In this document: positions 32,243 to 59,913 of the stretch, piece by piece
How positions within the stretch are numbered: position 1 is the stretch's first letter
Layout: every line of letters starts with the position of its first letter
DNA from: Rhodococcus sp. B7740
Lineage (GTDB): Bacteria; Actinomycetota; Actinomycetes; Mycobacteriales; Mycobacteriaceae
DNA length: 64,000 nt
Reading direction: 5' to 3'
Assembly: GCF_000954115.1 (NCBI RefSeq)
Contig: NZ_CP010797.1
Coordinates: 2,728,001 to 2,792,000 of the forward strand
Program-made: the position numbers and the translations under genes
Notes under the pieces: model-generated
What the model was told of the DNA's origin: nothing
The model's database searches: none
What the model saw: the letters and a program-made list of their open reading frames with translations, nothing else

Positions 32243-33136
32243 CTACAGTCCGACACGTTCCAGCAGCGCATCGAATGCCTCGCTGGCTTCCTGCTCCGAG
32301 CGGCCGGATTCGATGACGCCGTTGTACACCGCCAGCGCCTCCTCCTGGTATTGCTTGTACTTCTCGAGCCACTTCTCGGAGTCGGCGCGCCAGTATCCGA
32401 TGATGTCGAAATACGCGATGTCGTAGCCCAATTCCTTGCGGAAGTGCTTGCGCACCCGACGCGAGGACGACGCCTCGCCGGCGAACCACACGTAGCCACG
32501 TCCCTCGGGCAATGGGTACGCCAGCACCGCGTCGTCGAGAACGCTTGCGCTGTCGCCGTTTCCGGATCCGATACGCCAATCGAACGTCACGTCGGCGGGG
32601 GTCTCGAAGGATTGGATGTCGCCGCGCTCGAGCACCTCGACGATCGCGTGCGCACGCGTTCCGGCGGGCAACTGCTCGACGAGACGACCGAGCGCGGGCA
32701 ACCCGGTCATGTCCGCGACCAACAGCAGCCATTCGACGTCGGCGGGCGGTGAATACCAGGAGCGGGGGCGGGTGAACAGCACCGTCTGCCCCGGGGCGGC
32801 CTGCTGGGCCCAGGTCGATGCGACACCGCCCTCGTGTGCGAAGAAGTCGATGGTCAGCTCACCGCGCTCCTCGTCGAGGCGGCGAATGGTGTAGTTGCGA
32901 CCTTCGGGTGCATCGTCGAGACCGTGGAACCACCACAACCCGTCGACCTCGGTCATCGGCGGCGGGATCACTTCGTCTGCCCTGGGAAAATAGACTCCGA
33001 CGCATTCGTCGGGCACCCCGAGCGTGCGGTAGCCGGCGACGTGCTCGCCGCCGAACGTCACACGCACCATGTGCACCGTGAGTCGTTCCACCGCAACGAC
33101 ATCGGCGTAGTAGAAGCCACGCGGTTGTTCACTCAT
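32243..33136 (-). CDS. Siderophore-interacting protein (flavin ferric reductase, SIP family)
   Basis: 297 residues. FAD domain with GRNYTIRRLD (R-x-Y-S/T motif) and FFAHEGGVASTWAQQAAPGQ, followed by the NAD(P)H-binding region LLLVADMTGLPALGRLV and the C-terminal VWFAGEASSSRRVRKHFRKE. ViuB/SIP reductases release iron from imported ferric siderophores. The ATG at 33136 with GAGGAC ahead is preferred to an upstream ATG. It is the last gene of the locus, behind its own iron box at 33216. Confidence 0.93.
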   Translation of the reverse strand: MSEQPRGFYYADVVAVERLTVHMVRVTFGGEHVAGYRTLGVPDECVGVYFPRADEVIPPPMTEVDGLWWFHGLDDAPEGRNYTIRRLDEERGELTIDFFAHEGGVASTWAQQAAPGQTVLFTRPRSWYSPPADVEWLLLVADMTGLPALGRLVEQLPAGTRAHAIVEVLERGDIQSFETPADVTFDWRIGSGNGDSASVLDDAVLAYPLPEGRGYVWFAGEASSSRRVRKHFRKELGYDIAYFDIIGYWRADSEKWLEKYKQYQEEALAVYNGVIESGRSEQEASEAFDALLERVGL

Positions 33137-33215
33137 CTTCGTCCTCGATACATATCTCGACGTCACTCCTGCGAGAAACCCTCAGGGCCGACTCGGGGCC
33201 GTTCTCCCTCAACTT

Positions 33216-33234
33216 TAAACTAAGCCTTGCCTAG
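33216..33234 (-). promoter_or_regulatory. IdeR/DtxR iron-box-like site upstream of the SIP gene
   Basis: On the minus strand CTAGGCAAGGCTTAGTTTA matches 12 of 19 consensus positions. It overlaps the stop codon of the ATPase gene (33220-33222) and lies 80 bp ahead of the SIP start, which suggests a separate iron-controlled promoter for SIP. Confidence 0.5.
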
Positions 33235-34026
33235 CCTGCGACCGACCCCCTTGGGGATCACCAGCGGAGTGTGCGATTCCGGATCGTCGATGATGCGGCA
33301 CGGCAGCCCGAAGACCGCCTCGACCAGCTCGGCGGTGACGACGTCGGCGGGCGCGCCCTCGGTGACCACTGCGCCGTCCTTCATCGCGATGATGTGGTCG
33401 GCGTACCGGCAGGCGTGGTTGAGGTCGTGCAGCACGGCGACGAGAGTGCGGCCGTTCTCGCGGTTCAGAGTGGCCAACAGGTCGAGCAGTTCGATCTGGT
33501 GGGCGATGTCGAGAAAGGTGGTCGGTTCGTCCAACAGCAGCAGCGGTGTCTGCTGCGCCAGAACCATTGCCACCCAGACGCGTTGCTGCTGTCCGCCGGA
33601 CAGTTCGTCCACCGGACGAGCCGACAGCGATGTCACTGCCGTTGCGTTCATGGCCTCGATCACCGCAGCCTCGTCCACCGCCGACCACTGCCGGATCAAC
33701 TTCTGATGCGGATAACGGCCCCGCGCAACGAGATCGGCCACCGAGATCCCGTCGGGCGCGATGGAGGTCTGCGGAAGCAGGCCGAGGCGTCGGGCAACTT
33801 CTTTCGCGGGATACGACGAGATCGCCTTCCCGTCCAGCAGAACGGTTCCGTGCGTCGGCTTCAGCAGCCGCGAGAGCGCCCGCAGCAGAGTCGACTTACC
33901 ACAGGCATTCGGTCCCACGACGACGGTGAACTTGCCGTCGGGAATCTCGACGGTCAGGTTCTCGCTGATGACGCTGCTGTCGTATCCGACCGTGATCTCG
34001 TCGGTGTGCAATCGAGGCTTCGTCAC
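33220..34026 (-). CDS. Ferric-siderophore ABC transporter ATP-binding protein (FecE/FepC type)
   Basis: 268 residues: Walker A VGPNACGKSTLLRAL, Q-loop LLPQTSIAPDGISV, signature ELSGGQQQRVWVAMVLAQ, Walker B LLLLDEPTTFLDIAHQ and H-loop AVLHDLNHACRYADH. These are typical for FepC-type siderophore importers. The GTG overlaps the stop of the upstream permease (GTGA). It works with the two FecCD permeases and a FecB-like lipoprotein. Confidence 0.96.
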   Translation of the reverse strand: MTKPRLHTDEITVGYDSSVISENLTVEIPDGKFTVVVGPNACGKSTLLRALSRLLKPTHGTVLLDGKAISSYPAKEVARRLGLLPQTSIAPDGISVADLVARGRYPHQKLIRQWSAVDEAAVIEAMNATAVTSLSARPVDELSGGQQQRVWVAMVLAQQTPLLLLDEPTTFLDIAHQIELLDLLATLNRENGRTLVAVLHDLNHACRYADHIIAMKDGAVVTEGAPADVVTAELVEAVFGLPCRIIDDPESHTPLVIPKGVGRRLGKA

Positions 34027-35090
34027 TGCTTCCTGCCTTCCCGCGCCAACAACCACACGAAGTATGCGCCGCCGACCGATACGGTCACCACACCCACCGG
34101 CAGCTGGGTGGGAGCGAACACGCGCTGCGCGACAACGTCGCTCACGACCAGCAGCAGCGCTCCCATGCACGCGGCAGGCATCAGCGCCACCGACGAGGTG
34201 CCGGTGAGGCGGCGAGCCAACTGCGGCGCAGCGAGCGCGATGAAGGAGATGGGTCCCGCGGCCGCGGTGACCATCGCGATCAACGCGACACCCAGAAACA
34301 CCAGCATCAGACGGGTCGGCTCGGCGCGCACGCCGAGCGCCCTCGCCGCGTCGTCCCCCATCTCCAACATCGGCAGCCGACGCGAGAGCACCGCCGAGCA
34401 CGACGCGATGACGACCGACACTGCCAGTACCGGCCCTACCTGCGACCACCCCAGCCCGTTCAGGGTGCCCGCACCCCACACGGCGGCCGCGATGGCGTCG
34501 TCCAGATCGGCCCTGATCACCAGCCAGGTGTTGACGGAGGCCAGCACGGCGCTGACCGCGATCCCGACGATGATCAACCGAAAGCCCTGCACCCCGCGCC
34601 GGTACGCGAGCAGGTAGACCACGGCGGCCGTTGCGAGTCCGCCGACGAGCGCGCCTGCTCCGGTCCGGTAGTAGCCACCACCGAGAGTGAGGATGACGAC
34701 GAGCGCGCCGGTGTAGGAACCGGTACCGAACCCGATGATGTCCGGGCTGCCCAACGGATTTCGCGTCAAGGATTGAAAGACCGCGCCCGATACACCGAGG
34801 GCGGCACCGAACAGGAAGGCCAGTGCCACTCGGGGAAACCGCCACTCCATCACCACGATCTCGGTCAGGCGTGGCGCATCGCCGAACACTGCGGCGAGCA
34901 CCTCGTTCGGCGGAATGTAGAGGTCGCCGGTCCCGACGGCGACTATGGAGACCACCGCCGTCACGGCAAGCAGGGCCGCGCAGACGCCCACCGTTCGGAT
35001 GCCGATGCGGCCGTCCACTCGATCCCGCACTCGCACGACCCACAACTTTCGGCCGAAATCGATGTTGCCGCCGCGTTGCTCACCGATCAC
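34023..35090 (-). CDS. Ferric-siderophore ABC transporter permease (FecCD family), second
   Basis: 355 residues, about nine to ten TM helices. Blocks RFPRVALAFLFGAALGVSGA, FQSLTRNPLGSPDIIGF and GPISFIALAAPQLARRL are the FecCD signatures, the last forming the ATPase-coupling loop. The GTG at 35090 overlaps the stop of the first permease. It forms a heterodimer with that protein. Confidence 0.95.
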   Translation of the reverse strand: MIGEQRGGNIDFGRKLWVVRVRDRVDGRIGIRTVGVCAALLAVTAVVSIVAVGTGDLYIPPNEVLAAVFGDAPRLTEIVVMEWRFPRVALAFLFGAALGVSGAVFQSLTRNPLGSPDIIGFGTGSYTGALVVILTLGGGYYRTGAGALVGGLATAAVVYLLAYRRGVQGFRLIIVGIAVSAVLASVNTWLVIRADLDDAIAAAVWGAGTLNGLGWSQVGPVLAVSVVIASCSAVLSRRLPMLEMGDDAARALGVRAEPTRLMLVFLGVALIAMVTAAAGPISFIALAAPQLARRLTGTSSVALMPAACMGALLLVVSDVVAQRVFAPTQLPVGVVTVSVGGAYFVWLLAREGRKQ

Positions 35091-36160
35091 AGTCCGCTCG
35101 CCTTCTTCCGGCGAACGAGCACGATCAGCACCGGTGCGCCGACGAACGCGGTGACGATACCGACCTGCAGCTCCCCCGGCCTGATCACGATGCGGCCGAC
35201 CACGTCCGAGAGCAGCAGCAATCCCGGTGCCGCGAACACCGTGTAGATCAGAATCCAACGCTGGTCCGGTCCGACGATCCAACGCACCATGTGCGGGATC
35301 ATCAGTCCGACGAATCCGATGGGCCCGGCCGCCGCGGTCGCGGCTCCGGCGAGCAGAGTCACAGCGACGACGCCGACGATTCGCGTCCGAACCACGTTCG
35401 CTCCCAGTGACCGGGCCAGATCGTCGCCGAGCGATATCGCATTGAGGGGACGAGCGATCAGGGCCGCCAGAAAGACTCCGAGCGCGATGAACGGGGCAAC
35501 CTCGGACGCGATGTCCAGGCCTCGACCGGCCAACGACCCCGCGCCCCAGAACCTCATCCTGTCGAAGGCATCCGGATCGAGCAGCAGCATGCCCGAGGTG
35601 ACGCCGCCCAGTACCGCACCGAGCGCAATTCCGGAGAGCGTCAAGCGAATCGGAGTGGCTCCGGCACGCCCCAGTGACCCCAGCGCGTACACCACGATCG
35701 TTGCGAACACCGCCCCGGCGAACGCGAACCAGATGTACGAGCCGATTCCGGTGAAACCGAACACGCCGACGGCGATCGCGACGAAGAACGCCGCCCCGGC
35801 GTTGACACCGAGAATTCCCGGGTCGGCCAGCGGATTTCGCGTCATCGCCTGAATCAGCGCACCGGCGACCCCGAGGGCGAGTCCGACGAGCAAACCCAGA
35901 ACCGTACGCGGAAGCCGCAGTTCGCGAACGATCACGGATTCGGTGGATCCGTCGGCGTGCAGCAGCCCGTGCCACACCCGACCGATCGGGATGTACTCGG
36001 TGCCCACCGAAATGCTCACCAAGCACAGCGCTGCCAGAACACCCAGGACGACGAACAACCCTGCGGCCCGACGCGCATCGGTGCGAGCGAGACCACCGAC
36101 TTCGGCCGGAACATCTCGCTGTTCCGGCTCGTCGCCCACGCTCGCACTCACCCGATTCAC
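35087..36160 (-). CDS. Ferric-siderophore ABC transporter permease (FecCD family), first
   Basis: 357 residues. LRLPRTVLGLLVGLALGVAG, IQAMTRNPLADPGILGVNAG and GPIGFVGLMIPHMVRWIVG mark it as FecCD. It has an N-terminal cytosolic extension of about 25 residues. The GTG at 36160 overlaps the stop of the ornithine hydroxylase gene (GTGA), tying import directly to biosynthesis in one operon. Confidence 0.95.
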   Translation of the reverse strand: MNRVSASVGDEPEQRDVPAEVGGLARTDARRAAGLFVVLGVLAALCLVSISVGTEYIPIGRVWHGLLHADGSTESVIVRELRLPRTVLGLLVGLALGVAGALIQAMTRNPLADPGILGVNAGAAFFVAIAVGVFGFTGIGSYIWFAFAGAVFATIVVYALGSLGRAGATPIRLTLSGIALGAVLGGVTSGMLLLDPDAFDRMRFWGAGSLAGRGLDIASEVAPFIALGVFLAALIARPLNAISLGDDLARSLGANVVRTRIVGVVAVTLLAGAATAAAGPIGFVGLMIPHMVRWIVGPDQRWILIYTVFAAPGLLLLSDVVGRIVIRPGELQVGIVTAFVGAPVLIVLVRRKKASGL

Positions 36161-37428
36161 ACCACCGATCGCACCCTCGCGCTCACTGCGGACTTCACGA
36201 TCTCACCGCTGCGAACAGCGATGTTCGACAGCAACGACGAGGTCAGACCGTGCGTGTGCTCGGTGCCGCCCTGCAGGTAGATCGAACCCGCACTCGGTTC
36301 GCGCGTCACGAGTCGATAATCCCGCGTCACGCGAGGACCGCGGGAGTCGTATTCGACGGCGTCGAACAGCGGACCGAGGATCTCGGGTAGATCGAGGGAC
36401 GTGAAGCCGGTGGCATAGACGACAGCGTCGCACAGTATGTCCTCGGCCAGACCCGTCGGGCCGTGCTCGACGGCGACCCGGACGCCGGACGGCTCCTCGA
36501 CGGCGTCGACCACTCGAGATGCTCCGTGCACGAACAGCCTGCGCTGCCCGCTGACCCGCTCGGCGTACTCGCGCGAGTACAGCTCCTCGATCAGGGGCAG
36601 GTCGACGGCGGAGTAGTTGGTACCGCGGTGATACTGCAGCAGCTGCTCGCGCAGCGTGTGGGACGACGAATAGAAGTCGTCGACGGCCGTCGGATCGAAG
36701 ATGCGATTGGCATAGGGGCTGTCGTCGGCGGGGCTGTACCCGTACTTGCGGAGCACGGCGTGCACGGAGGAATCGCCGTACGACGAGTGCAGGTAGTCCA
36801 CCACCTCGGCCGCGCTCTGCCCGGCACCGACGACGACGAACGTGCGATGCGTCCGCGACGGCAGGCGGTCCAGGTGCCCGAGGAGATCGTGGTTGTGGAA
36901 CTGCCGCGCCGACGCCGTCACCCCGTCCGGCAGGGTGGCCGTCAAACCGCCGGCGAGCACGATGTTGCGACCCCGCACGGTCCCGGTTCGTCGTCCCTCG
37001 GTTCGGACGCCGTAACCGTCACCGGTGTCGACGACGTCCACTGCCCGGGTGCCGTAGTGCACCGTCGCGTCGACCTTTCCGGCGGCCCACGTCAGGTAGT
37101 CGTGGAATTCGAGTCTGCTGGGGAAGAACGTCTGCAGGTTGATGAAGTGATTGAGTCGACCGTGCTCCGACAGGTACGCCAGAAAGGTGTACTCGCTGCC
37201 TGCATTGCGCTGGGTCGCCAGGTCCTTGAGAAACGAGATCTGCATCGTCGTCCCCGGCAACAACATGCCGGGGTGCCAGGCGAACTCGTCCTTGGACTCG
37301 ACGAAGCAGGCCGTCAACCGTTCTGTGGGAGCGCAGGTTCGGTTGTGCTCCTCGATCGCGATGGCCAGTCCCAGATTGGAGGGCCCGAATCCGACGCCGA
37401 CGATGTCGTAGTTCTCGTGCGACGTCAT
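36157..37428 (-). CDS. L-ornithine N5-monooxygenase (SidA/PvdA/IucD family)
   Basis: 423 residues. The FAD motif is [17 protein letters not shown], the substrate region [25 protein letters not shown] motif [18 protein letters not shown], and the C-terminal ATGF-like [13 protein letters not shown]. The family hydroxylates the side-chain amine of ornithine or lysine, making the hydroxamate precursor. The hOrn-type code of the NRPS A domain at 50049-53411 argues for ornithine. Its ATG overlaps the panD stop. No N-acyl or N-formyl transferase is seen nearby. Confidence 0.93.
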
Positions 37429-37841
37429 CGAACGCTCGCCCCCGACATCTGATCGACGGCACCCGGAACCGGCTCGGACGGGTCGACTCCGAGAGCGACG
37501 ATCTCGTTGGCAGAATCGACGTGCACCACCGACGGGGTGTGCGAGGACAGCTCGGAGTTTTCCACCTGTCGGAACGACATGATGATCACCAGATCACCTG
37601 GGGACACCAGATGCGCTGCTGCGCCGTTGATTCCGATGACACCGGAACCGGGGTGCCCTTCGATCACATACGTCACCAGGCGCGCTCCGTTGGTGATGTC
37701 GACGACGTGAACCTGTTCGCCCTCGATCAGGTCGGCGGCGTGCATCAAAGTGGAGTCGATGGTGATCGAACCGACGTAGTGCAGGTCGGCGTGAGTGACA
37801 GTGGCGCGGTGGATCTTTCCACCCAACATGGTGCGATGCAT
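37425..37841 (-). CDS. panD: Aspartate 1-decarboxylase PanD within the siderophore operon
   Basis: 138 residues. Pyruvoyl enzyme with the self-cleavage site Gly-Ser in [11 protein letters not shown] (position about 24/25), the conserved Lys in GGKIHRATV, and the Arg and Tyr in [31 protein letters not shown] is typical. It makes beta-alanine from aspartate. It overlaps the salicylate synthase stop (TGATG) and the hydroxylase start (ATGA), so it is translated as part of the siderophore operon. It may supply beta-alanine as a building block, or pantetheine for carrier proteins. The C-terminal 25 residues extend past the usual end. Confidence 0.95.
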
Positions 37842-39187
37842 CAGGCGTCTTCCTCCTTCTTACGGACGAGATACGGGGCGACGCTGCCGAGTTTCTCGCA
37901 GGTTTCGTCGAATTCACGATCGGGAGTCGACTGGCCGACGATGCCGGCACCGGCACGCAGCCATGCCGATCCGCGCTGTTCGTACACAGCTCGAAGCACC
38001 AGCGCCGCTTCGAGTTCCCCCGTGGACGACGCCTTCACGACGGCCCCCGAGTACAGGCCGCGAGGCGGGTCGTCGAGCCGCCCTATCGCCTCGATGGCCT
38101 CACGTTTGGGAATGCCCGATGCCGTGACGGCCGGGAACAGGGCCCCGAAAGCGTCCCAGCAGGACAGGTCGTCACGCAGACGTGCCCGCACGGTCGACGC
38201 GAGGTGCTGGACGCTTCCGCGCTCTCGCACACTCATGAAGTCCGACACGGCGGTCGACCCGGGTCGTGCGATCGATTCCAGCTCCTCGAACGAGGTACGA
38301 ACGGACACAGCGTGTTCGGTGATTTCCTTGGGATCCTGCTCGAGATCGGTTTTCGCTGCGGAGTCGGCCTCGGAGCCGAGACCGAAGGCCCGCGTGCCTG
38401 CCAACGGTTCGGTGGTGACCACACCACGTGCGTCGACGGACGCAACCAGCTCCGGGCTGAAACCCGAGGCACGTAGGTCACCGAGGTGCAGAAGGAACGA
38501 GCGAGCCGGAGTGTTCGCTGCTCGCCCCGCCCGGTAGGTACCCGGCATGTCCAGATCGAACGGAATACGCACCGTGCGAGAGAGAATGACCTTGGCGTAC
38601 TCACCTCGGTGAATCTCTGCAACAGCTTGCGCCACCCGACCGCGATAGTCGTCGAGGTCGCCGCCGACATCGAGCGGGTGGACCGTCGGTGGCTCGTCGA
38701 CGGAGGCGGCGGTGAGTACGGCGAACACCGCGGCGCGGTCCTCCTCGGTCCCGGTGACCTCGATATCGTCGCAGTCATGTCCGAATCGGACCTCGACTCG
38801 CGGCACGACCATATGGGCGAGCACCTCGTCGGACTCGGACTCGGCGACGGCGTCGTGCAGGTGGGCTGCGAACCCGAATCCGACGTAGCCGTACGCATTC
38901 CAGGATTCGCGAGTGAGACCGTCGCAGGCCTCACGCAACGCCGCCGCCGGGTTGCCGGACCACCGACGCACCGTCGGAGCCCCGCTCCCCCACGTTGTCG
39001 TGACGACATCCGGTTGCAGGACGATGCGAGCGACCACGCCACCCGCGAACACCCAGCGTCCTCTGTCCTCGTACACGACGTACTCGTCGAACAAGCCGGA
39101 CTCGGCCAACGTGACCACCGTCTGCAACCCGCGCTGCAGGATGGTCGTATCGGCCGTGCCCGACGCCGTTTCTTCGACAACGGTCAT
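37841..39187 (-). CDS. Salicylate synthase (MbtI/Irp9 type)
   Basis: 448 residues, the size of MbtI. Converts chorismate to salicylate by way of isochorismate with Mg2+. The chorismate-binding fold is seen in [77 protein letters not shown] and [12 protein letters not shown]. The [20 protein letters not shown] segment is much closer to MbtI than to DHB-pathway isochorismate synthases, and no entA/entB-type genes are present. ATG 39187 with GGAGTG ahead is preferred over ATG 39247. Confidence 0.88.
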
Positions 39188-39273
39188 GTGTATGTGCACT
39201 CCTGACGGTGAATCGGTCCGAGACCGCGCATCGCGCGCAACCGACATGCCGAGAGCATCGCCGCGCGCCTTCA

Positions 39274-50048: not shown

Positions 50049-53000
50049 TCAGATACTGCTTTCGAATTCGTCGAGCTCGTCCTGGGACAGATCCACGGTG
50101 ACCGCCGCAGCAGAGACCGCAGGCCGGGCGGAGTCGTCGGTGACGAGCTCCGCACCGAACATCCGCACTGTTCGCTTGCGCATCACCTCACGCGGTGCCA
50201 GCGGTATCGAGGCCTTGCGCGCCCGCGATGCCACGGCGAGGGAGGTGATGCTGTCACCGCCGAGGGCGAAGAAATCGTCGTCGATACCCACCCGGCCGAC
50301 CCCGAGAACCGCCTCGACGATCTCGCACAACATCGTCTCCACCGGTGTTCGCGGCGGCACGAACGTACCGCCGCCCGCGGCGTCGACGGCGGGCAGAGCT
50401 CGTACGTCGAGCTTGCCGTTGATCGTCATCGGAACGCGTTCCAGCGCGGCGAACAGCGTGGGCACCATGTACTCCGGCAGGACGGCCGCAAGCTCGTCCC
50501 GAATGGATCCGAACAACGCGGAATGGTCCTCGCCCGCAGCGGCATCGCGGGGAACCACGTACGCGGCGAGCGCCCGGGTACCCGCGCCGATCTCCACCGC
50601 TCGCACCACCGCACCGGCAACCGCGTCGCAGTTCGTCACTGCCCGCTCGACTTCCGCGGTCTCCACGCGATAGCCGCGGATCTTGACCTGGTCGTCGGCA
50701 CGGCCCAGATAGTCGAACAGGCCATCGGGCCTGATCCGCACCAGATCGCCGGTGCGGTACATCCGCTCGCTCGGCGACCAGGGATCGGCGACGAAACTGG
50801 TTGCCGTCTGCGCGTATCGGTGCAGGTAACCGCGGGCCAGACCCACACCCGACAGATGCAGCTCACCGACAGATCCCACGGGGACGGGACGTAGCCACTG
50901 ATCCAGAACGTACGCGCGGGTTCCGAGGATCGGTGCACCGATCGACGGGGTGTCACTGTCTCGGGTACCCGCACCGAGCGCATTGATCGTGTACTCGGTA
51001 GGCCCGTAGAGGTTGTAGCCGACACCGCCGAGCTGCTGCCACAACGAATCGGGTACCGCTTCCCCGCCGAGGAGCACCAGCGGAATCCGATGTCCGTCGT
51101 GCTCGTTCAGCAATCCCAGGTCCAGCAGGTGCCCGGCGTACGTGGGCGTCACGTTCACCACGTCGATCAGGTTCTGCTCGCAGTATCGCGCCAATGCTTC
51201 ACCGTCACGGCGCAATTCCTCGTCGCAGACGTGCACCTCGTGGCCTTCGACGAGCCACAGCAGCTCTTCCCACGACATGTCGAAGGAGAACGAAACGGTG
51301 TGCGCGATCCGCAGCGTCCGATCCCCGGCCGCGGCGATGGTCGGAACGAAGATCTCGTCTCGGTGGTTGATCTGCATGTTCGTCAGACCCCGGTACGGGG
51401 TGACGACGCCTTTGGGCGTGCCGGTCGAGCCCGAGGTGTAGATGACGTAGGCCGGGTGCTCGAGGCGGCCGGGTGTCCCGGGCGCGAACGGCCCCGAGTC
51501 GAACTCCGACGCGTTGACAAGTTCCGCCAATTCGGCTGCCACGGCGGGATCGTCGACGATCATCGCGGTGGCGTCGGTCGTCAGTCCTCGGGCCTTCGTC
51601 TCGGTGGTCGTCACCAGGATCGTGGGCCGTGCGTCGGCCAACATCAGGTCGAGGCGATCGCTCGGATAGTCGAGTTCGAGGGGCAGATAGGCCGAGCCGG
51701 TGCGCAGTACCGCGAACAGCGCCACCACCATCTCCACCGACCGCGGCAGCGCGAGGGCGACGATGCGTTCCGGACCGGCACCTCGGCGCAGGAGTGCCCG
51801 TGCGCACGCACCGACGCGCGCGTCCAAGTCTCCGAACGTCACTCGTTCGGCCCCGAACACCAGCGCGGTCGCGTCGGGAATGGATGCGGCCCGGTCGGCG
51901 AGCAACTCGGCGATCGTGGAATCGCCCAGTCGCTCGAGCCTGTCGTCGAAACCGTTGTCCACGATGCTCACCGATTCGGCGGCCGGTGCCGGCCACTGCG
52001 ATATCGGCAGATCGGGCTGCTCGGCAACGGTTTTCAGAGCGTTCTCGAAGGAGTCGAGCAGATACCGTGCGCGATCGTCGTCCACCGAGTCGGGCAGGTA
52101 CGTCACCGACAGGTTCAGCTCGCTACCCGGGTCGACGGCAATCGACACCGGGAACTCCGAGCCGTCGACGGTCGAGACGTGTCGTACCCGATGCTCCGAC
52201 GGAGCACCGGTGTCCACTGCAGGACCGGCCGCGTTGCGCAGCACCAGCAGGGTGTCGAACAGCGCACCGGCACCGATCGCCTTCTGAATTCCGCCGAGAC
52301 CGAGGGTGTCGTGTGCCATCAGATCCAGGCGCTGATCCTGCACTCGCGCAGCGATGCCCGCGACGGTGTCGGATCCGCCCGCCGTGACCCGGAGGGGAAC
52401 GGTACTGATGAACGCGCCGATGGCATGCTCCGAGCCCGGCACCTCCATCGGGCGCCCGGCAACGGCGGTACCGAACACCACGTCGGACCGACCGGATATG
52501 CGCATGAGCACGCTGGCCCACGCGGCCGCCAACACGGTGAAGAGCGTCGACCCGGATTCGCGCGCAATCGAATCCAGTCGTCCGGAGACCGCCTGCGACA
52601 GTCTCCGTTCGACGCGTCGAGGAGCCTCGTCGCCGCCCTGACCCGATTCGGCCACCAGTGTGGGCGTGTCGACATCGCCGAACCAGCGCTGCCACGCCCG
52701 CTCGGACTCGACCCGGTCGCGAGAGGCCAACCAGCGCAGATACTCCCGGTAGCCGTGATCGAGGTTCGGGCTCGCGCCGTCGTACTGTTCCAGGACACGC
52801 GAGACCAACAACGCCGAGGACCCGCCGTCGAAACACCCGAACCAGTAGGTCGTCAACAGGCGATCGACACCGTCGGGAAAGTGCACGAGCGTGACCCGGA
52901 ACAGTGGCGGCGCAGCGATGTCGAACGACCGCTGCCGGTCGTCGGCGAGTATCCGGTTCCACTGCTGGTCGATCTCGCTCGCCGAGCAGCTACCGAGGTC

Positions 53001-53411
53001 CACCACCGTCAACGGTGCCTGCACCGTCGACAGAACCACTTGCACCGGCATGCCGCCGTCGGGAGTGACGAACGCCGTGCGCAGCGCCGCAGTGGAGTCG
53101 ACCACCGACTGCAGAGCACGACGAACCCTGTCACCGTCCAGAACCCGGTTCACCTCGACCACGGTACGAACGGTGTAGAGCTCGGTGGCGTCCGCATCCA
53201 CGCCGACCTGATAGACCAGCCCGAGCTGCAGCGCACACAACGGCCATACATCGTCGACGGAGCCGAATCGTGCTTTCAGCGCACCGAATTCGGGCGATTC
53301 GAGGTCGGCGAGAGGACCGCGCTCGATCTCGGCGGTCTCGCCACCCCGGGCGCGCCGGAGCCGATCCGCCAGCAACCGGCGCTTGATGTCGTCGAGATCC
53401 GTCGCCTTCAT
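50049..53411 (-). CDS. Nonribosomal peptide synthetase, single C-A-PCP module for N5-hydroxyornithine (1120 aa)
   Basis: C domain about 40-470, A domain 490-990, PCP 1010-1080 (ALGGDSITSL). The A-domain pocket, aligned to PheA through FDMSWEELL, NVTPTYAG, LLGGEAV and LYGPTEYTIN, reads D-M-E-N-L-G-L-I-N. This is the code I know for N5-hydroxyornithine (coelichelin module 3), and it fits the hydroxylase in the operon. The C domain lacks the normal HHxxxDG: the site reads WFGCFDG, so both His are replaced. ATG 53411 overlaps the ligase stop. The C domain may be inactive, or the module may act in a non-standard way. Confidence 0.93.
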   Translation of the reverse strand: MKATDLDDIKRRLLADRLRRARGGETAEIERGPLADLESPEFGALKARFGSVDDVWPLCALQLGLVYQVGVDADATELYTVRTVVEVNRVLDGDRVRRALQSVVDSTAALRTAFVTPDGGMPVQVVLSTVQAPLTVVDLGSCSASEIDQQWNRILADDRQRSFDIAAPPLFRVTLVHFPDGVDRLLTTYWFGCFDGGSSALLVSRVLEQYDGASPNLDHGYREYLRWLASRDRVESERAWQRWFGDVDTPTLVAESGQGGDEAPRRVERRLSQAVSGRLDSIARESGSTLFTVLAAAWASVLMRISGRSDVVFGTAVAGRPMEVPGSEHAIGAFISTVPLRVTAGGSDTVAGIAARVQDQRLDLMAHDTLGLGGIQKAIGAGALFDTLLVLRNAAGPAVDTGAPSEHRVRHVSTVDGSEFPVSIAVDPGSELNLSVTYLPDSVDDDRARYLLDSFENALKTVAEQPDLPISQWPAPAAESVSIVDNGFDDRLERLGDSTIAELLADRAASIPDATALVFGAERVTFGDLDARVGACARALLRRGAGPERIVALALPRSVEMVVALFAVLRTGSAYLPLELDYPSDRLDLMLADARPTILVTTTETKARGLTTDATAMIVDDPAVAAELAELVNASEFDSGPFAPGTPGRLEHPAYVIYTSGSTGTPKGVVTPYRGLTNMQINHRDEIFVPTIAAAGDRTLRIAHTVSFSFDMSWEELLWLVEGHEVHVCDEELRRDGEALARYCEQNLIDVVNVTPTYAGHLLDLGLLNEHDGHRIPLVLLGGEAVPDSLWQQLGGVGYNLYGPTEYTINALGAGTRDSDTPSIGAPILGTRAYVLDQWLRPVPVGSVGELHLSGVGLARGYLHRYAQTATSFVADPWSPSERMYRTGDLVRIRPDGLFDYLGRADDQVKIRGYRVETAEVERAVTNCDAVAGAVVRAVEIGAGTRALAAYVVPRDAAAGEDHSALFGSIRDELAAVLPEYMVPTLFAALERVPMTINGKLDVRALPAVDAAGGGTFVPPRTPVETMLCEIVEAVLGVGRVGIDDDFFALGGDSITSLAVASRARKASIPLAPREVMRKRTVRMFGAELVTDDSARPAVSAAAVTVDLSQDELDEFESSI

Positions 53412-55101
53412 CGAGTCGCCTGCCGTTCGGAGGACTGCGTGACGAGCAAGGACTTGTCCACTTTTCCGATTGCCGTCACGGGCAGCGACGGTCGGGTCAC
53501 CACGCGGTCGGGCAGCTTGAATCCTGCACAGCCTGCGGCCGTGAGGAATGCTCTCACCTCGGCGACGGTCGGAGCGCTGTCGTTTCCAGCGCTGTCGTTC
53601 CGAGCACTGTCGTTCGGCACGATCACGGCGCAGATGCTCTCGCCCACATCGGGATCGGGTACTCCGATCACCGCGGCTCGGGCAACTCCGGGATGGGTGA
53701 GCAGGAGATCCTCGAGCTCGTCGGCCGCGACGTTCTCCCCGTTGCGGGTGATGACGTCCTTGATCCGGCCGGTGACGACCAGGTGACCGGAAGGCAATCG
53801 TCGAACCTGATCTCCGCTGCGGTAGAAACCGTCGGGGGTGATGGCCGTCGTATTGTGCTCTGCCGCAGCGTAGTAGCCGTTGATCGTGTACGGGCCGCGG
53901 GTGAGCAGCTCGCCCGTCTGCCCTGCCGGTACGTCGTGACCGTCGGCGTCGACGATCCGGATCTCGTCGTGCTCGGACAGGGGACGTCCTTGGGTGCCGA
54001 TCACCAGCTCCGGTGCGTCGTCGGTCCGCGTGTAGTTCAAGAGCCCCTCGGCCATTCCGAACACCTGCTGCAACCGGCACCCGAGCGACGGTTCGACGAT
54101 CTTGGCGATCTCGGGTGTCAGCTTCGCTCCCCCGACCTGCAACAAGCGCAGGCTGGACAGGTCCGCTTCTTCCCAGTCCGTCGCCTCGCACCACAGATGT
54201 GTCAACGTCGGAACCAACGCGGTGACCGTGACCCGATGCCGCTCGATCACCGCGAACACCTGATCGGGACTGGGGTACGGGAGAACACCACTGTTGCTCC
54301 GACCCCGAGAGCACCGAGCAGACCAGGACAGGCCAGCGGAAAGTTGTGCGCGGCAGGCAGAACCGCGAGATACACGTCCTCGGCCGTCAGCTCACAGACC
54401 TGCGCGCTGGCCCGTGCGTTGTACTCGTAGTCGTTGTGGGTACGCGGAATCAACTTCGGCAGACCCGTCGTTCCGCCGGATACCAACAGCACCGCGATAT
54501 CCGCAGGGGACGCGCGCGGAAAATCCCCTGGCGTACCGACGACCTCGGACAACGGACTGTGCGAGCCGCACGATCCATCGACGAAGACGTCCCGAATGCT
54601 CGGTACCGCCGCCACTGTCTCGTCGGCGAGCGCACGGTAGTCGAACTGTCCGTCCCGGTCGGCGATCACGTACGCCACGGCCTTCGATGTGGCTGCCAGA
54701 TGGATGATTTCGCGTCGGCGATGTGCGGGGAGAGTCAGTACCGGGACCGCGCCGCACTCGAGCAACGCCAGCAGTACGACCGCGAACGACACCGAATTGG
54801 GTAGTTGCACCACCACTCGATCCCCCGGCCCGATGCCGCGGTCGGCAAACCCTGCTGCGGTCGCTCGTACTCGCGAATACAGCTCGTCGTACGTCAGCTC
54901 CTCGGATTCGTCCACTACCGCGCGTCCGGAGCCGAAGCGGTGCACCCACGAGGTGAACACGTCGGGAAGTGTTGTCTCGCGCCAGAGTCCGGCGTCGAGG
55001 TACGTTCGGGCGCGGCCCCGGTCGAACGGTACGAAGTCAGCGTTGTGCTCGATGACTGGGTGCACTGTGGATTCCCGATCGTGGAAGGAGTGGGTGGGCA
55101 T
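53408..55101 (-). pseudogene. Salicyl-AMP ligase (MbtA/YbtE type), frameshifted
   Basis: Two reading frames together make one about 564-residue aryl-acid adenylating enzyme. Frame 1 (55101 to about 54280) has DLY-like TYLDAGLWRETTL and the aryl-ligase P-loop VSGGTTGLPKLIPRTHNDYE, ending GVGATVVFS. Frame 2 (from about 54279 down to 53408) continues PYPSPDQVFAVIERH and ends with GRIKDVITRNGENV and GKVDKSLL (catalytic Lys). The shift needs one extra C in the CCC run at 54279-54281 (GGG on the plus strand). Function: activates salicylate and loads the ArCP of the next-upstream NRPS. A true mutation, programmed slippage or sequencing error cannot be told apart here. Confidence 0.88.
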
Positions 55102-55107
55102 GTCGAT

Positions 55108-58100
55108 TCAGGGGGTGTGCTGGTGGTCGAGTGCGGCCACCAGTTGGTCCTCCGTCATGGATTCGATCGATACGTAGATCTCTGCGGTCGCCTCCAGCAG
55201 TTCGGCGTCACCTTCGGCTGCGATCATCGACTCCGCCAGACCCGACACGGTCGGCGCGGAGAACAGCATCCTCACCGTGACGGAGGTGATGTCGAAGGCC
55301 GCGCGAATTCGAGCGACGATGGTGGTCGCGAGCACGGAGTCGCCGCCCAGCGCGAACAGGGTGTCGGTGACTCCCACCTCCTCGGCACCGAGCACGCTCT
55401 GCCAGATCAGGGCGAGTGCACCCTCGAGTCGAGTTCGAGGCGCGACACGAGCCCTGACCCGCTCGGTATCACCTGCCGCCCGGCACAGTCGGACGATTTC
55501 CGCCGAATCGATCTTCCCGTTGACGGTCAGCGGCAGGGCCTTCAGTGCCACCATCCGGTCCGGCACCATGTGGGCAGGCAAACGGTCGGCAACCCTGGCG
55601 GTGATGCCCGCGACGGTCTCGTCGGAATCCGCGTCGGAATCGCCGAGCACCACCGCTGCCATCACCACCGCAGCGCCCGAGCGATCGACAACTGCCGCGG
55701 CGGCGGCGACGTCGGGATCGCCGACCAGGACCGACTCGATCTCTCCCAGCTCGATGCGAAACCCGTTGATCTTGATCTGATTGTCGACGCGGCCGATGAA
55801 TTCCACCATCGAGTCCGTGCCGTAGCGAACCAGATCGCCGGTGCGGTACCAGCGATATCCCTCGACCTCGACGAAGCGTTCGCTCGTGCGCTCGGGGTCG
55901 TCCAGGTAACCGTCGGCCAATCCTGTTCCTGCCACCCACAGCTCGCCGGGTACCCAGTCCGGCACCGGATACCCACGCGCATCGACGACCCGCAACGCCA
56001 TCGAACGCAGCGGCAGTCCGAACGGCACCGTACGCCAGTGCGGATCGACCTCGACGACCTCGCAGATGCTGTTGTGGATGGCCGTTTCGGTTGCGCCGCC
56101 GAGTCCGGCGAATCGGCATTCCGGAACGGCTGCCCTCAGTCGGCGGTAGAGATCGACACCGACCTTGTCGCCGCCGAGCATGACGACCTGCAGCGAGTCA
56201 CCCAGATCCTCACCGGCGGAGAGGATCATGTCCAGCAGCGGCGGTACGCAGCTGATCACCGTGACTCGATGCGCACGAATCAGAGCGGCCCACCGCTGCG
56301 GATCCTTGCGCTCGTGCTCCTGGACGAGCACGGCGCTGCCGCCGGCGGCGAACACCGAGAACAGGTCGAACGTGCAGAGGTCGAAATCCAACTCGGACAG
56401 GCACAACGGGCGGTAGCGCTCGTCAAGCGCGAATCGGTCGACCAGGTCGCCGATCGTGTTCATCGCCGCACGATGCGACACGACCACACCCTTGGGCTCC
56501 CCCGTCGAACCGGAGGTGAAGATCATGTACGCGGGAGCGGTGTCGGGTCCGAGATGTGGGGCGGGCAGAGCGTCACCGAGGACCGCGTCGGACACCGCGA
56601 GGCCGTCGCCACCCTTTCCTCCGATCGTCACCGCGAACCCTGCTTTTCGCGCGATCAGTGCAGCGCGACTCGCCGGTTGGTCGACGCCGATCGGGACGTA
56701 CACCCCGCCCGCGGCGAGCACACCGAGAACGGCGACCACTTGATCGGGCCCCTTCGGCAGCGTCACCCCTACGGTGTCGCCCACTACCACATCTCGATCC
56801 TTCAGTGTCGCAGCCACTCTCAGCGCTCGGTCACACAGATCGCCGTACGTCATCGACTCGTTCTCGCCCCACTCGAGCGCCACCGCATCGGGATTCTGCG
56901 ACGCGCGATCGAAGAAGGCGCGGTGCAGGGACTCGTTCCCGGCTGCCTGCGACGCGTCCGTTCGGGGTACATCGTCCGACGGAGTTCGTGAGACCAGCTG
57001 ATGCGGCGGAACCAGCCGACCCACCGGTTCCGACCACACGGTGTCACCGTCGACGACGAGTCCGCGAACCAGCGCCTCGAAAGCGTCGAACATCGCCTCG
57101 GAAACCCCTGGCAGGAACTCGTTCTCGCGAATGTCCCAGTTGACCAGCACGCCGCCGTCGAGCTCGGTGATCTGGGCGTCCAGTACGACCTGCGGTCCCT
57201 GCGACATGATCCACACCGGGTCCCCGAAAATTTCCCGCGCGCGGGCGTCGAACAACTCGCCCAACCCGAGCGCACTGGTGAAGACCACGGGCGCAAGTAC
57301 CGGTTCTCCCCGACGACGGCCGAGGTCACGGAGAACCTCGACTCCGGAGTAGTCGACGTGCGAGGCATCCTCGTGCAGTCGAGCCCTCAGTTGCCGGGAC
57401 CGCTCGGCGAACGACAGGTTCTCGCTCAGATCGACGTCCAGCATGACCGAGGACGAGAAGTCGCCGACGAGATCACCGACAGCGGGGTGCGTCGGGGCGC
57501 GGTCGAACATCGGAACGTTGAGCAGAAATCGCTGCTCACGTGACCAGGCCCCGACCACCTCGGCGAACGCCGATGCCACCGCTACCGCCGGGGTGACGCC
57601 ATGTGCGCGAGCCCGCGACTGCAAGAGCGAATAGTTCTGCGAATCGAGGTGAAACGACCGCCTGGTCGCCGACGGAGATCCCGAATGATGTTCCAGCAGA
57701 GGCAGAGTGGGTGCACCGGGCAGCGCGTCGAGTCGATCGGTCCAGTATCGCTGTGCCTGCGCCCGCGCCTCGCGGCGATCCTGCGGGCGGTCGGCGAGGT
57801 AGCCCGCATAGCTGTAATCGACGGTGGGAAGCACCTGTCCGTCGTATGCCGTGGCCAGATCTGCGACCAGGATTCTGAAGCTGACGGCGTCGCCCGCAAT
57901 CATGTCCATGTCGAGATGCAGTCGCGTTCGACCGTCCGGGAGCAACGACAGATCGGCCGAGAACACTTCTCCGGCTTCGATGTCGAGCATCTGGTGCGTC
58001 AGGCGTTGACGAGTTCGTTCCAGCTCGTCCGTTGCGTCGTCCTCGCTCCGCAGATCGTGCACCGTCAACCCGCGCCACCCTGGCGTGGACTCGATCACCT

Positions 58101-58593
58101 GCTGTCCGTTGTCGGTGATCCGAGCCCGCAGCATGTCGTGCCTGCGGGCCACGGCTTCGAGTGCAACGCGCAGTCGATCGGGATCGACTGCGCTGCCGTC
58201 GAACTCGGTGTAAAGGTGCGGCGAGACGCCACCGAACCGCTGCTCAGCGCTGCGGCCGATCCAGTAAGCATGCTGCAGTACAGCGAGATCGAAGCTGTCC
58301 GTGTCGAGCGTGCGCGCGGCCGGTATCGCCTCGGGGGCGGGAGTCCGGGGTGCCGGTTCGTCTGCGGCACCGACCAATTCGCACCACGCCGATATCGTCG
58401 GCTGCGCCGCGAGGTCGGCGAACGTCACCGCACTGCCCTGTTTGCGAAACCTACCGACCAACCGCATCAGCACGATCGATTCCAGCCCCAACTCGAACAG
58501 GTTCGCATCGACCGGCACAGCGTCGGGCTCGGAGCCGATCAGCTCTGCGACCGACGTTCGCAGTTCGTCGAGCCCTGTTCCCTGCTGATCCAT
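55108..58593 (-). CDS. Starter NRPS, ArCP-Cy-A-PCP (MbtB-like, 1161 aa)
   Basis: Start ATG 58593 (MDQQGTGLDELRTSVAELIG) with AAGGGG nine bases upstream. An aryl carrier protein (residues 1-80; FELGLESIVLM, with Ser for the phosphopantetheine arm) is followed by a heterocyclisation domain (about 100-520; DMIAGDAVS fits DxxxxDxxS, replacing HHxxxDG), an A domain (about 560-1040; TSGSTGEPKGV) and a PCP (ALGGDSVLAT). The A pocket reads D-L-F-S-M-G-L-I-H. A Cy partner implies Ser, Thr or Cys, giving a salicyl-oxazoline or thiazoline. No oxidase or thioesterase is present. This should be the first gene of the operon. Confidence 0.95.
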   Translation of the reverse strand: MDQQGTGLDELRTSVAELIGSEPDAVPVDANLFELGLESIVLMRLVGRFRKQGSAVTFADLAAQPTISAWCELVGAADEPAPRTPAPEAIPAARTLDTDSFDLAVLQHAYWIGRSAEQRFGGVSPHLYTEFDGSAVDPDRLRVALEAVARRHDMLRARITDNGQQVIESTPGWRGLTVHDLRSEDDATDELERTRQRLTHQMLDIEAGEVFSADLSLLPDGRTRLHLDMDMIAGDAVSFRILVADLATAYDGQVLPTVDYSYAGYLADRPQDRREARAQAQRYWTDRLDALPGAPTLPLLEHHSGSPSATRRSFHLDSQNYSLLQSRARAHGVTPAVAVASAFAEVVGAWSREQRFLLNVPMFDRAPTHPAVGDLVGDFSSSVMLDVDLSENLSFAERSRQLRARLHEDASHVDYSGVEVLRDLGRRRGEPVLAPVVFTSALGLGELFDARAREIFGDPVWIMSQGPQVVLDAQITELDGGVLVNWDIRENEFLPGVSEAMFDAFEALVRGLVVDGDTVWSEPVGRLVPPHQLVSRTPSDDVPRTDASQAAGNESLHRAFFDRASQNPDAVALEWGENESMTYGDLCDRALRVAATLKDRDVVVGDTVGVTLPKGPDQVVAVLGVLAAGGVYVPIGVDQPASRAALIARKAGFAVTIGGKGGDGLAVSDAVLGDALPAPHLGPDTAPAYMIFTSGSTGEPKGVVVSHRAAMNTIGDLVDRFALDERYRPLCLSELDFDLCTFDLFSVFAAGGSAVLVQEHERKDPQRWAALIRAHRVTVISCVPPLLDMILSAGEDLGDSLQVVMLGGDKVGVDLYRRLRAAVPECRFAGLGGATETAIHNSICEVVEVDPHWRTVPFGLPLRSMALRVVDARGYPVPDWVPGELWVAGTGLADGYLDDPERTSERFVEVEGYRWYRTGDLVRYGTDSMVEFIGRVDNQIKINGFRIELGEIESVLVGDPDVAAAAAVVDRSGAAVVMAAVVLGDSDADSDETVAGITARVADRLPAHMVPDRMVALKALPLTVNGKIDSAEIVRLCRAAGDTERVRARVAPRTRLEGALALIWQSVLGAEEVGVTDTLFALGGDSVLATTIVARIRAAFDITSVTVRMLFSAPTVSGLAESMIAAEGDAELLEATAEIYVSIESMTEDQLVAALDHQHTP

Positions 58594-58666
58594 TCGGTGC
58601 ATCCCCTTCGATCGGCTGCTGTGCGTCGTACCGGTCGCGGCCAGGAGGTTTGCCACCCCAGAGGCA

Positions 58667-58685
58667 TAAGGAAAGGCTACCCTCG
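58667..58685. promoter_or_regulatory. IdeR/DtxR iron-box-like site at the head of the NRPS operon
   Basis: TAAGGAAAGGCTACCCTCG matches 13 of 19 consensus positions. It sits between the divergent starts of the NRPS operon (58593) and a second FecB-like lipoprotein (58792), so it could repress both. A further half-site CAGGCTAAC lies about 20 bp to the right. Confidence 0.6.
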
Positions 58686-58791
58686 CTTAGTCGACCCTCA
58701 GCAGGCTAACATCTGTCCGCCCGGAGGAGTGGTCGGACCTGCACCACCCGCCCAGGACATCGGACCGGCAGACCCACAACGGAAGTGACTC

Positions 58792-59913
58792 ATGATTTCC
58801 CACCACAACCACAGGACGGGCCACTTCGGATCCCGACAGCACGCACTCGTCGGAGGCGTCGCGGTCCTGGTTCTTCTTGCTGCATCGGCGTGCAGCAGCA
58901 ACGACACGGACCTGGAAGACCACCGCACCCAGGTCGTCGACCTGAACGCCAACCCGGCCGCGTGCAGCGAGAACGACCGCGTCGAGACAGTCGATCGAGA
59001 AGAAGGACCGTTTACCTACACCGACGGCCGCGGTCGGACCATCTCGCTCGAGTCGCAACCGACCAGAATCATCGCCGACGAGGAATCCGCCGCAGCGCTG
59101 ATGTCGTACGGAATCAAACCCGTCGCCATCTGGTCGACGACGCCGATGAGCACCAGCCCCATCCTCAGCTGCTCCGACCTGTCCGGCATCGAATCGGTCG
59201 GCGAGAGCTGGGGGACATTCGATTTCGAGAAGGCTGCGAGCCTCGACCCGGATCTGGTCGTCGGTGAGTTCAACCCTCGATTCGGGCAATTCGGCAAGCT
59301 GACCACCACGGCCGATTCGTCCGAGGCCGACACCATCGATCAGCTCGCTCCCACCCTGGGAGTCACCTTGGACACGACATCGACGGCAAAGACCATCGAG
59401 AACTACGCGGGGCTCGCGTCCTCACTCGGAGTCGACCTCGACACCCCACAACTGGCAGACATCAAGGCCGAATACGACGCTGCCGTCGCGAATTTCGAGA
59501 AGGTTGCTTCCGAACGCCAGGACCTCACGGGCGTCGGAGTCTGGCCACTCGACGTCGCGTACGTACTCGATCCGTCTGCGGACCCAGACTTCGGCGACTA
59601 CCAACGCTGGGGACTGAAGATGTACACCCCCGACGGTACCGACGACGGGTACTGGAAGAAGGTGTCGTGGGAGAACGTGTCGACCGTCGACGCCGACGTG
59701 GCGTTCGTCTACCACGACGTCGCCAACGCTGCCGACGTGAAGCTTGCGGACATTCCCGGCCGCTACCCCGGCTTCGACGCCATCTCGGCCGTCGACAACC
59801 AGCAGATGGTGCTGTGGGACTACGGCGCCAACAAGAGCTACAGCCGGTACACCAAGACCATCGACATCTACGCCGACGCACTGTCCAAGGCGCAGAAAGT
59901 CACGGCCGAGTGA
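58792..59913 (+). CDS. Second siderophore-binding lipoprotein (FecB/FhuD-like, 373 aa)
   Basis: Signal peptide with lipobox SAC (VLVLLAASACSSNDTD). The mature protein has the class III binding fold: GRTISLESQPTRIIADEESA, SYGIKPVAIW, DFEKAASLDPDLVVGEFNPR and the C-lobe VAFVYHDVANAADVKL. The unusually Asp- and Tyr-rich C-terminal part resembles periplasmic proteins for xenosiderophores or siderophore-like ligands. It is divergent from the NRPS operon and under the same iron box. No permease accompanies it, so it may share the importer at 33-36 kb. The 3' end overlaps the HIT gene by 14 bases. Confidence 0.88.
   Translation: MISHHNHRTGHFGSRQHALVGGVAVLVLLAASACSSNDTDLEDHRTQVVDLNANPAACSENDRVETVDREEGPFTYTDGRGRTISLESQPTRIIADEESAAALMSYGIKPVAIWSTTPMSTSPILSCSDLSGIESVGESWGTFDFEKAASLDPDLVVGEFNPRFGQFGKLTTTADSSEADTIDQLAPTLGVTLDTTSTAKTIENYAGLASSLGVDLDTPQLADIKAEYDAAVANFEKVASERQDLTGVGVWPLDVAYVLDPSADPDFGDYQRWGLKMYTPDGTDDGYWKKVSWENVSTVDADVAFVYHDVANAADVKLADIPGRYPGFDAISAVDNQQMVLWDYGANKSYSRYTKTIDIYADALSKAQKVTAE

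What the first reader, a model, noticed from the sequence alone, without database searches (positions are those of the whole stretch)
32243..59913. A salicylate-capped hydroxamate siderophore locus apparently unlike the known rhodococcal siderophores
The locus has an MbtI-type salicylate synthase and an MbtB-like ArCP-Cy-A-PCP starter, but its later modules are not mycobactin-like: no PKS, an hOrn module and a two-module NRPS ending in an E domain. The rhodococcal siderophores I know (heterobactin, rhodobactin, rhodochelin) use 2,3-dihydroxybenzoate. By gene order the product would be salicyl-oxazoline/thiazoline, hydroxyornithine and two more residues, the last of D configuration. Hydroxyornithine with possible beta-alanine recalls madurastatin-type compounds.
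Basis: partly seen in the sequence, partly recalled or inferred. Interest (0 to 1): 0.85.

Follow-up and report, generated by a model that had tools for sequence, protein, structure and literature searches.

The report
Salicylate siderophore locus, histidine-less condensation domain
A bacterium of the Rhodococcus fascians group carries genes for a probably undescribed iron-scavenging peptide, and one enzyme domain in it belongs to a family that has lost the histidine thought essential for joining building blocks, perhaps because its building block, hydroxyornithine, is reactive enough without it.

Summary
No PKS was found in the ORFs scanned. The biosynthetic genes and A-domain codes recur in 7 relatives.

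Two corrections. The hOrn module more likely acts last, after the E-terminated protein, giving Sal-azoline-(beta-Ala?)-D-X-hOrn. And the ligase reading frame is interrupted in this genome; it is open in 7 of 7 relatives.

The unexpected result: the hOrn module's C domain reads WFGCFDG where C domains read HHxxxDG. Of 84 de-duplicated C domains directly before a hOrn-code A domain, 79 lack the second, catalytic His, against 0 of 106 before other A domains. Loci found with the A domain alone gave 34 of 38. Five coelichelin-type synthetases that I annotated share the loss. Selection on the domain resembles that on intact ones. My reading is that a hydroxylamine nucleophile needs no general base. 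Fuscachelin-type synthetases keep the His and limit the rule.

The product structure is unproven.

The parts
55108..58656 (-). NRPS starter, ArCP-Cy-A-PCP (P0001, 1182 aa, MbtB-like); A code DLF(S/C)MGLIH
   Evidence: S by the alignment, C by my reading of the letters
54247..55101 (-). N-terminal piece of an aryl-AMP (salicyl or 2,3-DHB) ligase (P0002)
   Evidence: TIGR02275 226 bits over residues 22-282, below the whole-protein cut-off
53408..54271 (-). C-terminal piece of the same ligase, in another reading frame; interrupted near 54.27 kb in this genome, open in 7 of 7 relatives
50049..53411 (-). NRPS2, C-A-PCP (1120 aa); A code DMENLGLIN, read as N5-hydroxyornithine
52824..52844 (-). WFGCFDG in place of HHxxxDG in the NRPS2 condensation domain (both His absent)
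42405..50048 (-). NRPS3, C-A-PCP-C-A-PCP-E (2547 aa); A1 code near IDTTISSGD (beta-amino acid-like, recalled), A2 code DAQEGGFVD
41251..42396 (-). Fe-siderophore binding protein (Peripla_BP_2)
39293..41185 (-). siderophore-interacting (ferric reductase) protein fused to an O-methyltransferase-like domain with an altered glycine-rich motif
37841..39247 (-). salicylate synthase (MbtI type)
36157..37428 (-). L-Orn/L-Lys N-monooxygenase; closest solved structure MbtG (449 bits), then KtzI (345 bits); the only strong one in the genome
35087..36160 (-). FecCD permease 1
34023..35090 (-). FecCD permease 2 (start approximate, inside ORF 34023-36026)
33220..34038 (-). FepC-like ABC ATPase (start approximate, inside ORF 33220-35043)
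32243..33166 (-). second siderophore-interacting protein
58792..59913 (+). divergent Peripla_BP_2 protein; found in 4 of 7 relatives with the locus
39274..39292 (.). candidate iron box (IdeR/DmdR-like, 3 mismatches to a recalled consensus) upstream of the salicylate synthase; a match of 4 mismatches or fewer at a like place in 7 of 7 relatives
58667..58685 (.). candidate iron box (4 mismatches) upstream of the starter gene; 6 of 7 relatives
42408..42426 (.). candidate iron box (4 mismatches) upstream of the PBP gene; 7 of 7 relatives
33216..33234 (.). candidate iron box (4 mismatches) upstream of the second SIP gene; 6 of 7 relatives

Best explanation
This is a probably iron-regulated locus for a salicylate-capped, mixed phenolate-azoline/hydroxamate siderophore. 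MbtI-type synthase makes salicylate and the aryl-AMP ligase loads it onto the starter. The Cy domain condenses it with Ser, Thr or Cys and closes an azoline ring. NRPS3 adds a beta-amino acid (probably beta-Ala) and a basic residue X, which its terminal E domain turns to D. NRPS2 then joins that D-residue to L-N5-hydroxyornithine. Because hydroxyornithine carries a hydroxylamine, which is unprotonated at neutral pH and an alpha-effect nucleophile, this last step makes a hydroxamate through N5 and does not need the general-base His of HHxxxDG. Shown here: gene content, domain order within proteins, conservation, loss of the His in a domain under ordinary purifying selection, and the association of that loss with hOrn modules across sampled Actinomycetes. 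Inferred: the residues, the protein order, the N5 linkage, catalysis without His, and iron control.
For: Gene content. A codes the same in the window and 7 relatives. hOrn code: five synthetases that I picked by length (3648-3698 aa; L219-L223) read DINYWGGIG-E, DFWN(I/V)GMVH-E, DMENLGLIN in one protein with no further domain found, which fits the residues (formyl-hOrn, Thr, hOrn), the two E domains and the missing TE that PMC9854754 gives for CchH (passages). His loss: 79 of 84 hOrn-coded C domains against 0 of 106 others; 34 of 38 among loci found with the A domain alone; 8 of 8 at this locus. Selection: median dN/dS 0.179 for the WF domain, 0.193 and 0.195 for the two intact C domains (28 pairs each). 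Class residues: Asp and Gly of the motif kept in 79 of 79; R361 in 99% against 1%. Order: the WF group sits inside the His-less hOrn clade; 33 of the 46 with a preceding domain in view follow E. Iron boxes at like places in 6 or 7 of 7 relatives.
Against: Four fuscachelin-type synthetases keep HHIVMDG before the same hOrn code. [quoted passage not shown] by my ring count that needs an N5 link, so N5-acylation does not require loss of the His. A fifth case that keeps it is G033. 78 of the 79 His-less domains form one clade and one (L190) lies outside it; parsimony needs 2 changes, so the counts are not independent events. The A1 code shifts with the alignment (IDTTISSGD, DGETISSGD, IDETISSGD), so beta-Ala is weak. 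X is not identified. All three downstream C domains fall with the after-E group, but under my order only one of them follows an E domain. No TE or release hydrolase was recognised in the ORFs scanned. The hydroxylase is closer to a lysine enzyme (MbtG) than to KtzI. In the smaller tree NRPS2-C was sister to NRPS3-C1. The interrupted ligase may make this strain a non-producer.
Confidence: 0.6

Rival explanations
1. Colinear assembly: starter, then NRPS2 (hOrn), then NRPS3, giving Sal-azoline-hOrn-(beta-Ala)-D-X released from the E-terminated protein.
For: Gene order is starter, ligase, NRPS2, NRPS3. Kasichelin synthetase also has a terminal E domain and no TE (PMC12305651 sections 6 and 9). NRPS2 ends in a short acidic tail, as the starter does, which might dock to a next protein (inference).
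Against: NRPS3-C1 groups with C domains that follow E domains, yet under this order it would take an L-residue. The hOrn module's C domain belongs to a clade that mostly follows E domains and includes the last module of CchH-type synthetases. The kasichelin authors themselves suggest an order opposite to the genes.
Confidence: 0.2
2. The NRPS2 condensation domain is catalytically dead: the module only loads hOrn, or recruits another protein as X domains do, and a different enzyme makes the bond.
For: The second His is called invariant and important for catalysis in C domains (PMC1894796 passages). An H-to-Q change left about 1% activity in a fuscachelin C domain acting on Gly (PMC8097023 passages). 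X domains lost the motif, are inactive and recruit P450s (PMC8949500 passage).
Against: The domain is under about the same constraint as intact C domains, keeps Asp and Gly in 79 of 79 and has its own conserved residues. In five CchH-type synthetases it is the only C domain between the Thr module and hOrn.
Confidence: 0.2
3. Degenerate locus: the siderophore pathway is decaying, and both the interrupted ligase and the altered C domain are signs of it.
For: The ligase frame is broken in this genome; with the N-terminal piece as query the next best match in the genome is only 35% identical.
Against: No other break was seen in the biosynthetic genes, and the WF motif occurs in 7 of 7 relatives whose ligase frame is open. 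The break may be a sequencing error; I could not test this.
Confidence: 0.1

Closest known systems
Kasichelin cluster (kas, Streptomyces sp. K17/9; PMC12305651 sections 4, 6 and 9 read)
   Same: Phenolate-oxazoline cap from a Cy-A-PCP starter whose A code suggests Cys although Thr is used; a beta-amino acid linker; a hOrn residue; a terminal E domain; no TE; suggested departure from gene order
   Different: kas lacks its own salicylate synthase and ligase, has single-module proteins and one residue fewer; its hOrn is D and forms a lactam
Madurastatin clusters (mad, rene, mds; PMC10779116 passages read)
   Same: Salicylate synthase, phenyl-oxazoline from Ser, beta-Ala and hOrn residues
   Different: Madurastatin adds Gly and has two hOrn residues, no epimerase in its cluster, and an aspartate decarboxylase there; none was seen here among the ORFs scanned
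Mycobactin/nocobactin clusters (gene content recalled)
   Same: MbtI-, MbtA- and MbtB-type genes and an MbtG-like hydroxylase
   Different: No PKS found here; later modules are C-A-T and C-A-T-C-A-T-E with the codes given
Coelichelin synthetase CchH, module 3
   Same: hOrn code DMENLGLIN, terminal C-A-PCP without TE, donor from an E-terminated module, His-less C domain (5 of 5 CchH-type proteins annotated)
   Different: Here the module is a separate protein and the rest of the assembly line has other residues
Fuscachelin-type synthetases
   Same: Aryl cap (ligase seen in 2 of the 4 fetched) and a hOrn module with the same A code; next to the His-less clade in the C-domain tree
   Different: Keep HHxxxDG in the hOrn module (4 of 4)

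Membership tests
Mycobactin/nocobactin-type cluster | MbtI-type salicylate synthase | tested here: met
Mycobactin/nocobactin-type cluster | PKS genes among the NRPS genes (recalled) | tested here: not met
   no KS domain in the ORFs scanned
Salicylate-capped azoline siderophore clusters (kasichelin, madurastatin and others) | aryl carrier plus Cy-A-PCP starter | tested here: met
Salicylate-capped azoline siderophore clusters (kasichelin, madurastatin and others) | intact aryl-AMP ligase | tested here: inconclusive
   two pieces in different frames in the window; open in 7 of 7 relatives
Salicylate-capped azoline siderophore clusters (kasichelin, madurastatin and others) | N-hydroxylase and hOrn module | tested here: met
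Madurastatin | residue order Sal-Ser-Gly-beta-Ala-hOrn-hOrn | tested here: not met
   codes and number of modules differ
Kasichelin | three NRPS residues, hOrn module ending in E | tested here: not met
   four A domains in the NRPS proteins; the hOrn module has no E
Canonical condensation domain | second His of HHxxxDG | tested here: not met
   WFGCFDG
Canonical condensation domain | sequence homology and Asp-Gly of the motif | tested here: met
   PF00668 and PvdL matches; DG present
Histidine-less hOrn condensation domains (group described here) | directly before a DMEN(L/M)GLIN A domain and inside the His-less clade | tested here: met
Histidine-less hOrn condensation domains (group described here) | forms a hydroxamate with hOrn N5 | not testable with these tools
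   needs chemistry

The most novel reading that the evidence does not exclude
There is an actinobacterial subfamily of condensation domains that builds hydroxamate bonds without the histidine held to be invariant. The acceptor's own hydroxylamine replaces the general base, and the loss of the His marks, from sequence alone, places where a peptide chain passes through the N5 of hydroxyornithine. The window locus makes a new siderophore by this route.
Probability: 0.5. Interest if true: 0.75.

Novelty: new variant of a known kind. Interest (0 to 1): 0.55.

Why it matters
If the His-less domains are active, a textbook catalytic residue is dispensable when the nucleophile is a hydroxylamine. That bears on what the His does in condensation domains, which PMC8097023 says remains a matter of debate (passage). 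It might also give a sequence mark for N5-linked hydroxyornithine, which A-domain codes alone do not give; the fuscachelin-type exceptions show that its absence would prove nothing. The locus itself points to an unassigned siderophore held by 8 of 37 sampled species of a genus that includes a plant pathogen.

Tried and rejected
Mycobactin-like assignment: rejected, no PKS found and different modules. Strict iron-box consensus with up to 3 mismatches: no match. A looser consensus gave one with 3 mismatches and, allowing 5 and looking only at 31-60 kb, four; no chance level was computed for the looser limit. Paper search for A codes as strings: no paper. For the His loss with hOrn: the listings and passages of PMC8949500, PMC13142362, PMC1894796, PMC8097023 and PMC10212144 showed no report of it; most subscription papers are not in the library, so it may be in print. 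The idea that NRPS2-C arose from NRPS3-C1 with its own His loss (small tree) was dropped when the larger tree put it inside the hOrn clade. The simple rule 'N5-linked means no His' was weakened by the fuscachelin-type proteins. The Fisher value is not used, since the sequences are related.

Rows dropped before the count: E domains, Cy domains, gapped motifs, C domains with no following A code (for example L199, motif HLLLWDG), near-duplicates, and the loci L001-L010, L033-L052 and L061-L090. The loci examined are the best-scoring ones that the tool returned plus those I fetched, not every hit.
Full report
WHAT IS THERE. The window is G000:C1:2728001-2792000 of a 5.34 Mb single-contig genome. 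Nine of ten named loci that encode a relative of the reductase fusion are labelled Rhodococcus or Rhodococcoides, one of them R. fascians NBRC 12155; the tenth, Gordonia hirsuta, matched only residues 3-268. On the minus strand lie the starter ArCP-Cy-A-PCP, an aryl-AMP ligase, NRPS2 (C-A-PCP), NRPS3 (C-A-PCP-C-A-PCP-E), a binding protein, a reductase-methyltransferase-like fusion, the salicylate synthase, an N-hydroxylase, two permeases, an ATPase and a second reductase; a second binding protein is divergent. The N-hydroxylase is the only strong member of its family in the genome (325 bits, the next 39.8). With the N-terminal piece of the ligase as query, the next match in the genome is 35% identical.

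THE LIGASE IS INTERRUPTED. The two halves are in different frames near 54.27 kb, and the ORF 50049-54314 begins in a wrong frame; NRPS2 starts near 53411. In 7 of 7 relatives with the locus the ligase is one open frame. I cannot tell a sequencing error from a real loss. The code at the ligase pocket reads PLPAQGVLN in 6 of 7 relatives and PLPAQGVVN in one; that L points to salicylate and V to DHB is recalled.

CONSERVATION. Seven of the nine have the starter at 81-91% identity, and four codes are the same in the eight loci: DLFSMGLIH, DMENLGLIN, IDTTISSGD, DAQEGGFVD. The divergent binding protein was found in 4 of these 7. In the genus as held (37 species) salicylate synthase exceeds the cut-off in 10: eight with this locus and two (G016, G034) with a different salicylate cluster. 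Candidate iron boxes stand upstream of four genes and recur at like places, with 4 mismatches or fewer, in 7, 7, 6 and 6 of 7 relatives; the consensus is recalled.

WHAT THE MODULES LOAD. DMENLGLIN is tied to hOrn by CchH-type synthetases. Five proteins of 3648-3698 aa, picked by length among the hits, read DINYWGGIG-E, DFWN(I/V)GMVH-E, DMENLGLIN, matching the residues, E domains and missing TE stated for CchH in PMC9854754 (passages). The first code of NRPS3 resembles beta-amino acid codes (recalled) but shifts with the alignment. DAQEGGFVD is unassigned; two acidic positions suggest a basic residue (inference). For the starter, KasH gives a warning: a Cys-like code there goes with Thr.

THE CONDENSATION DOMAIN. 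NRPS2-C has WFGCFDG where HHxxxDG is expected, in 8 of 8 loci, and the alignment to solved PvdL places WF on HH. The 29 loci returned for the best hits across the order, the window's own left out, showed the same loss, with L, F or M in place of the second His, each before a hOrn code (29 of 29). More distant hits split cleanly: hOrn code without His, other codes with His. A search with the A domain alone gave, among the loci examined, 34 without and 4 with His after de-duplication. Over all loci used, 79 of 84 hOrn-coded domains lack it and 0 of 106 others do. The sample was gathered by similarity to this module. 78 of the 79 form one clade (support 0.84), the four fuscachelin-type domains with His lie just outside (0.99), G033's, also with His, between them, and one His-less domain (L190, ELILLDG) falls elsewhere; parsimony needs 2 changes. 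So this is mainly one old loss kept, not 79 events. The domain is not decaying: dN/dS 0.179 against 0.193 and 0.195 for intact C domains of the neighbouring protein; Asp-Gly in 79 of 79; Arg361 in 99% against 1% and Asp183 in 96% against 5%.

MECHANISM. The His is generally thought to help deprotonate the acceptor amine, though this is debated (PMC8097023 passages), and is called invariant in C domains (PMC1894796 passages). A hydroxylamine is not protonated at neutral pH and is a strong nucleophile (general chemistry), so N5 of hOrn could attack unaided. In coelichelin the hOrn N5 is acylated by D-allo-Thr (recalled, not seen in a call), which fits. The four fuscachelin-type synthetases keep the His. 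I name them so because their stretches hold Gly-like, Gly-like with an HHxxxDE motif, Ser-like and hOrn modules (codes recalled) and, in two of the four, an aryl-acid ligase; the HHxxxDE variant is reported for fuscachelin C3 in PMC8097023. Their 10-membered hydroxamate ester (PMC13251462 passage) implies N5 linkage by ring count. Their hOrn also joins a second arm (heterodimer, same passage), and I suggest that having to acylate the alpha amine too is why the His stays there. This is a guess, and coelichelin, whose hOrn alpha amine is also acylated (recalled), does not support it plainly.

ORDER OF ASSEMBLY. NRPS2-C sits among domains that usually follow E: 33 of the 46 His-less ones with a preceding domain in view. 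NRPS3 ends in the only E domain. All three downstream C domains fall with the after-E group in the small tree, although under my order only NRPS2-C follows an E domain. I favour starter, NRPS3, NRPS2. Product, inferred: salicyl-azoline, beta-Ala, D-X, hOrn joined through N5.

COMPARISON. Kasichelin and madurastatin are the nearest in chemistry that I read about, CchH module 3 the nearest for the last step; by the tests listed the locus is a member of none of them. In the papers searched for it (no 'salicyl'; no 'Rhodococcus') no salicylate siderophore of Rhodococcus is named, but the kasichelin paper mentions a salicylate synthase locus reported for R. jostii RHA1. A curated cluster comparison was not possible.

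Noticed in passing
window 32243-59913 against L025-L029 (G008, G009), L110-L112 (G033), L115-L116 (G037): The biosynthetic core seems to be exchanged around kept uptake genes. 12 of 37 genus members have the reductase fusion at 70% identity or more, but four of them lack the salicylate genes there and carry other NRPS genes at or beside the uptake genes. In G008, FecCD1, ATPase and SIP2 are 97-98% identical to the window while the NRPS genes differ in codes and domain order.
   Followed up: partly
39293-41185: A siderophore-interacting reductase is fused to a DnrK-like methyltransferase fold in which the glycine-rich motif and an acidic residue of DnrK (taken from recall as the SAM site) are changed; paralogues of 33-39% identity sit elsewhere in the genus. 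Perhaps a pseudo-enzyme.
   Followed up: partly
about 54.27 kb: Aryl-AMP ligase reading frame interrupted in this genome, open in 7 of 7 relatives.
   Followed up: partly
L031, L117-L119 (G034, G016): A second kind of salicylate cluster in two genus members shares the unassigned code DAQEGGFVD.
   Followed up: no
L184, L185, L189, L191, L192, L194, L196, L198, L202, L212, L215: A QV variant of the His-less motif goes with the code DMENMGLIN in 11 of 11 such loci, all in family f32 genomes; G033 (L110) has the same code with HH.
   Followed up: no
L190: A hOrn-coded module whose C domain (ELILLDG) lies outside the main His-less clade, perhaps a second loss.
   Followed up: no
G000:C1:1016000-1046000 and 1984000-2034000: Giant NRPS frames of about 7000-8900 codons in the same genome, products unknown.
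   Followed up: no
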